Below, piece by piece: positions 1 through 14,799 of a stretch of 35,407 bases of DNA. The notes beneath the pieces were generated by a model. That model was not told where the DNA came from. It searched no databases and worked only from the letters and a program-made list of their open reading frames with translations. The DNA is from Prevotella sp. (GTDB lineage Bacteria; Bacteroidota; Bacteroidia; Bacteroidales; Bacteroidaceae): positions 1-35,407 of the forward strand of contig JAGAPR010000058.1 in NCBI GenBank assembly GCA_017623155.1, written 5' to 3'. The translations under genes and the position numbers were made by a program. Within the stretch, counting starts at the first letter, position 1. Every line of letters starts with the position of its first letter.

Positions 1-296
1 GCATTTTCTCCGATTTTGCCTTGCAATAAGGCCGTAATTGCATTGCATTTACGGCCTAACGGGAGTGCAATTAGGCCGTAATTGGAATGCAATTACGGCC
101 TAATTGGAAAACAAGACGGTTTTTAATGCTTTCAAAAAATGTGCAAATATCCGTATCTTTCTCGTATACAGGCATTTACGTAAAACGCCTTAAAACTCGC
201 GAATTTGCGAGCTCGAAACTTTTTTTTCAGAAAAACGCAATTACAAAGACCGTTAATTTATTTAACAGTCCGTTTTAGTTCATTATACGTAACTAA
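1..296. repeat. Left arm of a 296-bp inverted repeat pair
   Basis: This segment aligns without gaps to the reverse complement of 14504-14799. I count about 16 mismatches by hand (about 95% identity), mostly transitions clustered at 130-190, while both ends are nearly identical. It may continue left of the window. It is non-coding and rich in hairpins: an imperfect palindrome at 30-56 and a 14-bp perfect stem at 71-84/90-103 built on GGCCGTAATTG, and a CTCGC/GCGAG stem near 196-211. No transposase is seen. The arm ends 10 bp from the stop codon of the small gene at 307. Confidence 0.95.
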
Positions 297-306
297 CCTG
301 CATTAG

Positions 307-537
307 TTATTCCTTTTGTTCCCTTTCGCGTGTCATGTTGTCGTAAAGGTCGACAGGTCCCCAGTGCCATAGCTTTGTACTTTCGTCTTCCAGTATTTTA
401 TATGTGTCTGATAAATAAATCTCTTTCACGGCTTCAGGTATGCCGATATTCTTTTCTTCTGTCAGCATCTCAGCCATTCTGCACACTTTGGAGGGGAGAA
501 ACAGATAAAGGTTTTCTTGGTTAACGTTCAGGTTCAT
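307..537 (-). CDS. Small protein, third gene of a DUF3791/DUF3990 cassette
   Basis: This 76-residue soluble protein is the last gene of a three-gene minus-strand cassette. Its ATG overlaps the TGA of the DUF3990 gene in an ATGA junction at 534-537, so it is probably made by coupled translation. The middle and end (around residues 35-66: EAVKEIYLSDTYKILED, then TKLWHWGPVDLY) resemble the small proteins that accompany DUF3791/DUF3990 genes in gut Bacteroidota and Firmicutes. The family assignment is from memory of the pattern and not certain. No signal peptide or membrane segment is visible. By analogy with toxin-partner arrangements it might bind the ADP-ribosyltransferase-like protein, but nothing in the sequence proves that. 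Confidence 0.75.
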   Translation of the reverse strand: MNLNVNQENLYLFLPSKVCRMAEMLTEEKNIGIPEAVKEIYLSDTYKILEDESTKLWHWGPVDLYDNMTREREQKE

Positions 538-1019
538 AAAACTATTTCTTCTGCATTAATGAATTTAATTGTTTTCAACGACCTTGCTGTATGAAAAAGA
601 TATTGGTCTATCAATTTGTAGGTTTTCAACTCGGTTTTCAGCGATTGTTTGTCAAGGATACCGCCTTCATATAGAGCAAATGCTGCATATACGCGGTCGT
701 TGGCTACCGGACCGTAAACGATGTCGTATGGATGAGTAAAATTTTTGTGTGTCCGGTTTGCCATTACAAAGTCTATCCACTCGTCTGTTGGCTCATTGAA
801 TGTAAGGGTGTTTAATCCATCGGTACCGTTGTCATTAAACTCAAAGACATTAATATATCCTTTTTTGAGATTGTTTTCTTTCATACGTCGTATCACCCAA
901 GCCTCAGCTTGGCTGCGTGACGTGGTCGTATAAAATCCTTTTCCGTAATCGAGTGTACGGTTGGAATTCCTTATTTCGGGCGTATTGACAATCTCGATAC
1001 TTCCGTGATACAGTTTCAT
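534..1019 (-). CDS. DUF3990 protein, ADP-ribosyltransferase-like fold
   Basis: A 161-residue protein of the DUF3990 family. I place the start at 1019 (MKLYHGS) because its ATG overlaps the TGA of the preceding gene; a start at 1070 would add 17 basic residues and overlap the upstream gene by 55 bp. Motifs typical of the ADP-ribosyltransferase superfamily are visible: LYHGS with H5 on the first strand, DYGKGFYTTT with Y30 followed by a helix (SQAEAW), and DIVYGPVAND at 99-108, matching an H-Y-x type NAD pocket. The end (QYLFHTARSLKTIKF) is also typical of DUF3990. I know of no established substrate for this family. Flanked on both sides by coupled small genes, it could be a toxin, a defence effector or a regulatory modifier; this is inference. 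Confidence 0.85.
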   Translation of the reverse strand: MKLYHGSIEIVNTPEIRNSNRTLDYGKGFYTTTSRSQAEAWVIRRMKENNLKKGYINVFEFNDNGTDGLNTLTFNEPTDEWIDFVMANRTHKNFTHPYDIVYGPVANDRVYAAFALYEGGILDKQSLKTELKTYKLIDQYLFHTARSLKTIKFINAEEIVL

Positions 1020-1237
1020 TGTTTTCCTTTTCTTATTTCTATATACTCGTCTATATCTGCGAGGATCCATTGGCGGCTTTGTGTGTGCAATACTTCAAAG
1101 TGTTCGTTGAGATATTCCAATACACCGTATTCGTCCATTTGCCGCATTGCTTCCGTCCCGGTCAGTCCTTTCTCTTTCTTGTATTGCTCGATGCAGAACG
1201 ATATGAAGTAAGCTCTGTCTTGTTGTTCTTTGCTCAT
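1016..1237 (-). CDS. DUF3791 family protein, first gene of the cassette
   Basis: A 73-residue cytoplasmic protein with the pattern of DUF3791: FISFCIEQYKKEKGLTG near the N terminus, then YGVLEYLNEHFEVLHTQS, and DIDEYIEIRKG at the end. It is the first gene of the cassette and ends in an ATGA overlap with the DUF3990 gene, which implies fixed stoichiometry or coupled translation. A TATTTTTG -7 element lies about 23 bp upstream of the start. DUF3791 genes are commonly found beside DUF3990 genes, so a binding or neutralising partner role is plausible but not shown. No Shine-Dalgarno sequence is visible. Confidence 0.85.
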   Translation of the reverse strand: MSKEQQDRAYFISFCIEQYKKEKGLTGTEAMRQMDEYGVLEYLNEHFEVLHTQSRQWILADIDEYIEIRKGKQ

Positions 1238-1259: not shown

Positions 1260-1267
1260 CAAAAATA
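1260..1267 (-). promoter_or_regulatory. Possible -7 element for the DUF3791/DUF3990 cassette
   Basis: On the minus strand this reads TATTTTTG, matching the Bacteroidota -7 consensus TAnnTTTG, about 23 bp before the ATG at 1237. A good -33 TTTG is not present at the expected distance (TTTA only), so support is partial. Confidence 0.4.
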
Positions 1268-14517: not shown

Positions 14518-14799
14518 TGAACTAAAACAGGCTGTTAAATAAATTAACGGTCTTTGTAATTGCGTTTTTCTGAAAAAAAAGTTTCGAGCTCGCAAATTCG
14601 CGAGTTTTGAGGCATTTTGCGTAAATATCTGTATACAAGAAAGATACGGGTATTTGTGCGTTTTCTGAAAGCATTTAAAACCGTCTTGTTTTCCAATTAG
14701 GCCGTAATTGCATTCCAATTACGGCCTAATTGCACTCCCGTTAGGCCGTAATTGGAATGCAATTACGGCCTTATTGCAAGGCAAAATCGGAGAAAATGC
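14504..14799. repeat. Right arm of the 296-bp inverted repeat pair
   Basis: Reverse-complement match to 1-296 over the full length without gaps. It begins within the final codons of tatD and contains two GGCCGTAATTG palindromes (about 14697-14729 and 14744-14770) and a tract of eight A. The left arm touches the window edge, so the true outer boundary of the repeat cannot be fixed; on this side 14800 is A. Confidence 0.95.

What the first reader, a model, noticed from the sequence alone, without database searches (positions are those of the whole stretch)
307..1237. Three-gene DUF3791 / DUF3990 / small-partner cassette joined by two ATGA overlaps
Seen: three short minus-strand genes with two ATGA start-stop overlaps, the middle one bearing H5, Y30 and a GPVAND motif of an ADP-ribosyltransferase-like fold. 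Known: DUF3990 and DUF3791 are families without an established function as far as I know. Inference: a fixed-stoichiometry module with an NAD-using effector held by one or two small partners, as in toxin-antitoxin or phage-defence cassettes. It abuts a hairpin-rich repeat, which fits an accessory or mobile character.
Basis: partly seen in the sequence, partly recalled or inferred. Interest (0 to 1): 0.7.

Follow-up and report, generated by a model that had tools for sequence, protein, structure and literature searches.

The report
Three-part ADP-ribosyltransferase toxin-antitoxin-like module
Three tiny overlapping bacterial genes appear to make a poison enzyme and two related small proteins that hold it in check, a widespread set so far listed only as an untested candidate defence against viruses.

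Summary
Three minus-strand genes, DUF3791 (A, 73 aa), DUF3990 (T, 161 aa) and a small partner (C, 76 aa), are joined by two ATGA overlaps. The trio matches PADLOC's untested phage-defence candidate PDC-M13 gene for gene. T belongs to the ADP-ribosyltransferase clan and keeps a near-invariant H5/Y30/Q139 triad. What I add: A and C are distant paralogues; T-C, C-A and A-C fusions occur, T-A was not seen; the overlaps recur in relatives; PDC-M10 is the same system with A and C fused; some A proteins carry a Xre-type DNA-binding domain; none of 65 full-length T copies in 295 Bacteroidales genomes stands alone, while A, often with C, survives lost or broken T; Bacteroides-group plasmids carry the module beside zeta- or HipA-type toxin genes. 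Best reading: a tripartite toxin-antitoxin-like module with an NAD-using toxin and a two-paralogue inhibitor. A phage-defence role is unproven: neighbours showed no excess of defence genes. The nearby hairpin repeat is a dispersed genomic repeat and no evidence of mobility. Toxicity, binding and NAD use are untested.

The parts
1016..1237 (-). Gene A: DUF3791 protein, 73 aa, first gene; proposed antitoxin/regulatory partner
   Evidence: PF12668 2.8e-21; PADLOC PDC-M13A 9.9e-37
534..1019 (-). Gene T: DUF3990 ADP-ribosyltransferase-like protein, 161 aa; proposed toxin
   Evidence: PF13151 1.6e-48; PADLOC PDC-M13B 1.2e-61; fold search on a relative led by ParT 6d0h, E 0.05
307..537 (-). Gene C: small helical partner, 76 aa, distant paralogue of A
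   Evidence: PADLOC PDC-M13C 5.6e-31; hhalign C vs A 94.6%
1016..1019 (-). ATGA overlap: stop of A / start of T
   Evidence: same 4-base overlap in 46 of 60 A>T junctions
534..537 (-). ATGA overlap: stop of T / start of C
   Evidence: same 4-base overlap in 52 of 87 T>C junctions
1005..1007 (-). codon of H5, proposed NAD-binding His of the H-Y-Q triad
   Evidence: H in 160 of 161 aligned T rows with a letter there
930..932 (-). codon of Y30, proposed NAD-binding Tyr
   Evidence: 164 of 164 rows
603..605 (-). codon of Q139, proposed third triad residue
   Evidence: 164 of 164 rows
1260..1267 (-). TATTTTTG, fits the Bacteroidota -7 element TAnnTTTG (consensus recalled, not tested); possible promoter of the trio
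   Evidence: read directly

Best explanation
A three-gene toxin-antitoxin-like module. T is an ADP-ribosyltransferase (shown: family and near-invariant triad; inferred: activity). A and C are paralogous small helical proteins encoded in overlapping frames with T (shown: paralogy by profiles, overlaps). They are inferred to form a pseudo-symmetric pair that binds T and keeps it inactive. Fusions suggest that C is the half that stays with T (T-C fusions exist, T-A fusions were not seen) and A the half that carries regulation (Xre-A fusions). When A or C is lost or titrated, for instance by plasmid loss or an infecting phage (inferred), T would transfer ADP-ribose to an unknown essential target and stop growth.
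For: ART clan and triad; the five best-ranked solved folds are ADP-ribosyltransferases led by the toxin ParT. A and C both beside T in 113 of 129 non-redundant copies with at least 900 bases on each side (named 66 of 66, same-order 40 of 48, viral 7 of 15). In 295 Bacteroidales genomes, 65 full-length T: 55 with DUF3791 within 1.5 kb, 7 with a fused A'-C' protein, 1 a T-C fusion at a contig end, 2 with an HTH protein, none alone. Of 74 strong A hits, 18 have no T (13) or only a T fragment (5), against 0 of 64 T without a partner (Fisher p 4.7e-6; 4.3e-4 if the 2 HTH cases count as lacking one; not corrected for kinship). Fusions: T-C 9, C-A in 7 loci, A'-C' 10 aligned, Xre-A 5, Xre-A-C 2 near-identical, T-A none seen. 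Paralogy: hhalign A-C 94.6%, T-C control 0.7%, 40 column shuffles at most 4.2%. Plasmid copies beside zeta or HipA toxin genes. DUF3990 also forms the C-terminal domain of some Rhs effectors (passages of PMC4524185 and PMC10763514).
Against: No toxicity, binding or ADP-ribosylation data. The fold match is weak (E 0.05, TM at most 0.48) and was made on a relative's fusion protein, not on the window protein. No complex of separate chains could be modelled and the tool gave no interface scores. T fused to C does not fit a classical freely removable antitoxin. The window's A has no DNA-binding domain. Named loci were ranked by likeness to T, so 66 of 66 overstates the rule. Among viral contigs, L129 shows T with no small partner (its near-twin L130 has one by eye) and L117 has only a ribbon-helix-helix gene upstream. 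Of the 13 T-less A loci, 9 keep C and 4 are A alone, so A may have other uses; one of the 13 (L226) shows weak T-like scraps downstream.
Confidence: 0.68

Rival explanations
1. A phage-defence system as PADLOC lists it (PDC-M13): the partners sense a phage product and release T to abort infection, as CmdTAC does with an ADP-ribosyltransferase.
For: Gene-for-gene match to PDC-M13; 3324 annotations in rumen genomes (PMC13356809, passage); patchy, multi-copy presence, matches in 31 of 60 species of the genus, up to 5 each; the CmdTAC precedent (PMC11618068, passages).
Against: No excess of defence genes beside it: few PADLOC matches at E<=1e-15 among 115 neighbours of 20 T copies, and as few among 120 control genes of the same contigs. 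T found in 8 of 50,697 phage records, which speaks to carriage by phages, not to defence. PDC systems are described as mostly not experimentally validated (PMC12988326 and PMC10855318, passages).
Confidence: 0.35
2. A plasmid or island addiction module, kept by post-segregational killing, with no sensing function.
For: 73 of 72,556 plasmid records carry T, 29 typed conjugative, across Bacteroides, Phocaeicola, Parabacteroides and others; next to zeta or HipA toxin genes on the three plasmids inspected for this.
Against: A fourth plasmid inspected (Segatella) shows no other toxin gene within 5 kb. Some copies lie on contigs of 1.3 and 1.6 Mb, so probably chromosomal, and the window copy is next to a gene found in 56 of 60 species of the genus. 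No stability assay.
Confidence: 0.3
3. One partner is an obligate subunit or folding helper of T rather than an inhibitor: T-C is the holoenzyme and A the only antitoxin, as CmdT needs CmdA to fold.
For: 9 natural T-C fusions and none of T with A seen; Xre domain seen on A or on A-C, at the A end.
Against: C-A, A'-C' and Xre-A-C fusions put both in one chain, and C persists with A in 9 of 13 loci without T.
Confidence: 0.35
4. A housekeeping regulatory enzyme, not a toxin.
For: No direct toxicity evidence exists.
Against: T matches in only 38 of 295 genomes of the order, up to 10 matches in one genome, with broken copies; plasmid carriage; T lost while A stays.
Confidence: 0.08

Closest known systems
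PADLOC candidates PDC-M13 and PDC-M10
   Same: The window trio matches PDC-M13A, M13B and M13C in order. A T relative's fused A'-C' partner matches PDC-M10B at 5.1e-60 (L134).
   Different: PADLOC names them as separate candidates; here they appear as one system differing by fusion and gene order, with A and C paralogous.
CmdTAC (toxin-antitoxin-chaperone, E. coli)
   Same: Three genes, one an ADP-ribosyltransferase toxin, the other two holding it (PMC11618068, abstract and passages).
   Different: CmdC is a SecB-like chaperone and CmdA a separate antitoxin; here the two partners are paralogues and match no SecB model at E<=1.
ParT-ParS (Prs-ADP-ribosylating toxin with its antitoxin)
   Same: Best-ranked solved fold for the T-C model (6d0h, E 0.05); ADP-ribosyltransferase with an antitoxin.
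   Different: T matches DUF3990 and shows no RES match (that ParT is of the RES type is recalled); two partners, not one.
HipBST
   Same: Tripartite toxin-antitoxin system (PMC10627512, PMC9325769: search listing with the start of the abstracts).
   Different: Kinase toxin; no sequence comparison was made.
Rhs effectors with DUF3990 C-terminal domains
   Same: Same catalytic family used where a toxin is expected (PMC4524185, PMC10763514: one passage each).
   Different: Type VI secretion effectors with their own downstream immunity genes; the function of the domain is called unknown in PMC10763514.

Membership tests
DUF3990 / ADP-ribosyltransferase clan | Pfam score above curated cut-off | tested here: met
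   164.7 bits vs 32.2
DUF3990 / ADP-ribosyltransferase clan | Conserved H-Y-[E/Q/D]-type triad | tested here: met
   H5 160/161, Y30 164/164, Q139 164/164 rows; Q139 as third residue is inferred, the triad scheme is recalled
DUF3990 / ADP-ribosyltransferase clan | ADP-ribosyltransferase fold | tested here: inconclusive
   Model of a T-C relative pLDDT 92.7; top five PDB hits are ADP-ribosyltransferases but best E 0.05
DUF3990 / ADP-ribosyltransferase clan | NAD-dependent ADP-ribosylation | not testable with these tools
   needs biochemistry
PDC-M13 (PADLOC) | M13A, M13B and M13C homologues adjacent on one strand | tested here: met
   9.9e-37, 1.2e-61, 5.6e-31; overlapping genes
PDC-M13 (PADLOC) | Sits among defence genes (expected of a defence candidate) | tested here: not met
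   No excess in 115 neighbours of 20 relatives' copies vs 120 control genes; the window copy lies at a contig end and was not among the 20
PDC-M13 (PADLOC) | Antiphage activity | not testable with these tools
   no phage assay; searches found one paper, which counts copies
Type II toxin-antitoxin | Small coupled genes, accessory distribution, plasmid carriage | tested here: met
Type II toxin-antitoxin | Toxin stops growth, antitoxin protein neutralises it by binding | not testable with these tools
   needs expression
Type II toxin-antitoxin | DNA-binding antitoxin (common, not universal) | tested here: not met
   window A and C have no HTH match; five relatives have HTH_3-DUF3791 proteins
CmdTAC | SecB-like chaperone | tested here: not met
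   no such match for A or C at E<=1
ParT-ParS | RES-type toxin domain (recalled) | tested here: not met
   T matches DUF3990, not RES

The most novel reading that the evidence does not exclude
The two small proteins are a split, pseudo-symmetric antitoxin made by duplication of one five-helix domain: C stays docked on the ADP-ribosyltransferase and A is the removable, sensing or DNA-binding half. The A-C pair may be an adaptor usable with other toxins, as one A-C locus lies next to a broken Fic gene. A duplicated-domain antitoxin of this kind, with a helical fold that found no match among solved structures, would be new.
Probability: 0.3. Interest if true: 0.65.

Novelty: new variant of a known kind. 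Interest (0 to 1): 0.47.

Why it matters
DUF3990 and DUF3791 are widespread families without an established function, and thousands of copies (3324 in one rumen survey) are counted as 'defence systems' with no test that I found. Joining PDC-M13 and PDC-M10 into one module with a paralogous partner pair turns them into a testable toxin-antitoxin hypothesis with named residues, natural fusions for structural work and a laboratory plasmid (pBF9343) for assays.

Tried and rejected
Defence-island association: not supported on this sample. 115 neighbours of 20 T copies gave 8 PADLOC model names at E<=1e-15 (two with 2 members, six with 1), 120 control genes of the same contigs gave 14 model names with 1 member each, several of them alternative models of one kind. 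Pfam tallies of the same genes showed no integrase or transposase among the 25 families listed of 113 and of 130. Hairpin repeat as mobility mark: rejected. Solved relatives by sequence: none credible for T or the partners. Fold of the C-A fusion: no PDB match, best E 3.6. Mixed alignments with C-only rows: C was placed on the wrong half, so those rows were left out before folding. Co-variation between T, A and C was not attempted: too few independent triples. Empty-site proof: the alpha-2-macroglobulin-like neighbour (name recalled from its look, not scanned) is found in 56 of 60 genomes of the genus, and none of the 24 relatives' loci fetched shows A, T or C beside it, but those genes are only 35-48% identical, so this is weak. 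A Bacillota-wide survey of DUF3791 was not possible.

Full report
Observation. The window's first 1.3 kb hold three minus-strand genes: A (1237-1016, 73 aa), T (1019-534, 161 aa) and C (537-307, 76 aa), joined by two ATGA overlaps. A is DUF3791, T is DUF3990, C has no Pfam family at E<=1; NCBIfam gave only one chance-level match (0.16). All three match the PADLOC candidate PDC-M13 in order: M13A 9.9e-37, M13B 1.2e-61, M13C 5.6e-31. The window begins at the first base of its contig, so nothing is known to the left.

The enzyme. A passage of PMC7955679 lists DUF3990 in Pfam's ADP-ribosyltransferase clan. In 164 aligned rows (163 T sequences of at least 135 aa, the window copy among them as L001, plus the window protein again), H5 is kept in 160 of 161, and D24, Y30, R89, G103 and Q139 in 164 of 164. 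GPVAND is looser (N107 is N or D). A natural T-C fusion of a relative (L149, 228 aa, 67-row alignment) was modelled at mean pLDDT 92.7 and pTM 0.69. Its five best PDB matches were four ParT chains (E 0.05 to 0.21) and exotoxin A domain III (0.62), with tankyrases lower among unrelated hits. These are consistent but weak, none at E<=0.001.

The partners are paralogues. Profile comparison of A (155 unique sequences) with C (159) gave 94.6% probability over 50 columns; T against C gave 0.7%; 40 column-shuffled A alignments gave at most 4.2%. The A profile also hits C genes directly in six of the 19 T loci fetched from the genus (L239, L241, L242, L247, L248, L251). A natural C-A fusion (L019, 142 aa) was modelled at pLDDT 91.8 and pTM 0.60 as two successive copies of the same five-helix pattern, with no PDB match (best E 3.6).

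The trio travels together. I pooled loci. Of 163 non-redundant T copies, 129 had at least 900 bases on both sides; 113 of these have both A and C on the same strand within 900 bases (named 66 of 66, same order 40 of 48, viral 7 of 15). The named loci were ranked by likeness to T and so are biased. Simple unfused orders are A-T-C (61), T-C-A (35) and C-A-T (3), cyclic permutations of each other; tandem arrays exist (L025, L066), so duplication and loss could explain them (inference). Of the 16 others, L007, L011, L116, L134, L136 and L146 have a fused A'-C' partner (A' vs A 81%, C' vs C 96.6%; PDC-M10B 5.1e-60 for L134), L029 and L162 an HTH protein, and L121 and L167 have A plus a diverged small downstream gene read by eye. 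The remaining six are viral contigs: L127, L128 and L131 have a small downstream gene (66-81 aa; only that of L127 weakly matches PDC-M13B, 0.0074), L132 a 188-aa one, L117 only a ribbon-helix-helix gene upstream (PF12651 5.3e-17), and L129 no small partner at all, though L130 with a near-identical T has one. In the genus set, L235, which showed no A or C by profile, has an A'-C' gene (4.7e-56). In a likeness-filtered subset of genes the ATGA overlap recurs in 46 of 60 A>T and 52 of 87 T>C junctions, against 9 of 46 C>A and 0 of 5 A>C.

Count not chosen by T likeness. In 295 genomes of the order, T occurs in 38, A in 36, C (one PADLOC model) in 35. Of 65 full-length T (at least 140 of 152 profile positions), 55 have DUF3791 within 1.5 kb, 7 have A'-C', one is a T-C fusion at a contig end and 2 have an HTH partner; none is alone. 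Of 78 A hits, 4 weak ones were dropped; of the other 74, 56 have a full T, 5 only a T fragment and 13 none. Nine of the 13 keep C, four are A alone, and one of these (L226) shows weak T-like scraps (12 of 13 read frame by frame). The asymmetry (18 of 74 against 0 of 64) has Fisher p 4.7e-6, or 4.3e-4 if the two HTH cases count as lacking a partner; neither is corrected for kinship. It is what one expects if T is costly without its partners.

Fusions. T-C in 9 distinct proteins from three genomes (L005, L135, L139, L144, L145, L149, L151, L157, L066); C-A in L012, L018, L019, L236, plasmid pBF9343 (L233) and two Parabacteroides plasmids (L324, L325); A'-C' in 10 aligned proteins; Xre-type HTH plus A in L002, L004, L085, L121, L167; HTH-A-C in two near-identical loci without T. 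No T-A fusion was seen in the loci scanned. This points to a T-C-A chain of contacts; it does not show them.

Setting. T matches in 31 of 60 species of the window's genus (30 over the family's cut-off). Plasmids: 73 of 72,556 records carry T, 29 typed conjugative. On pBF9343 the C-A/T pair precedes a small gene and a zeta toxin; on two Parabacteroides plasmids that share the same stretch it precedes a helix-turn-helix gene and a HipA-family toxin; on a Segatella plasmid no other toxin gene lies within 5 kb. Phage records with T: 8 of 50,697. Neighbours of 20 copies showed no excess of defence genes. The hairpin-rich repeat near the cassette has about 40 scored copies in the genome and marks nothing special here.

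Known or new. Literature searches for DUF3990 (4 papers, 3 opened at the passage), DUF3791 (1, passage: more prevalent in bone-disease isolates of Enterococcus cecorum, function unknown), PDC-M13 (1) and PDC-M10/M42/M13 together (the same 1) found no experiment on this module; only open-licence PMC papers are searched. PADLOC already names the trio; the paralogy, the union with PDC-M10, the fusions and the decay asymmetry are what this report adds. Mechanism remains inference: a tripartite, ADP-ribosylating toxin-antitoxin-like module, confidence 0.68, with phage defence, plasmid maintenance or both as its use.

Noticed in passing
window 1-125 and 14677-14799: A palindromic repeat of about 110-125 bases, ATTAGGCCGTAAT-type, matching about 40 scored places in the genome (40 of 127 candidates scored); REP- or MITE-like.
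   Followed up: partly
L215 (G078:C30:10000-15000), 1727-2131: An A-C pair without T is followed by a Fic-domain gene that stops at its HPF motif (PF02661 0.00061, below the cut-off; PADLOC PDC-S72 2.6e-49): the pair may have served another toxin. One case only.
   Followed up: partly
L051, 4831-7068: C runs in frame into a DEAD/ResIII-type helicase (PF00270 1.1e-10), apparently a C-helicase fusion in a Prevotella MAG.
   Followed up: partly
L220 and L221: HTH-A-C triple fusions with no T nearby: orphan antitoxin-like proteins.
   Followed up: partly
L122-L125 (viral contigs): Loci with two C-like genes after T, possibly a further duplication of the partner.
   Followed up: no
L029 and L162: T with a 218-221 aa partner that ends in an HTH_3 domain and matches PDC-M42B, a different partner family for the same enzyme.
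   Followed up: partly
L117, 4019-4741: In a viral contig T is preceded by a ribbon-helix-helix gene (PF12651 5.3e-17) and has no A- or C-like gene seen: perhaps yet another antitoxin type.
   Followed up: partly
genome G019, C81:162862-163047 (L172): A weak DUF3990-like stretch (21 bits, below the cut-off) inside an open frame of 3377 aa, perhaps a polymorphic toxin or polyvalent protein.
   Followed up: no
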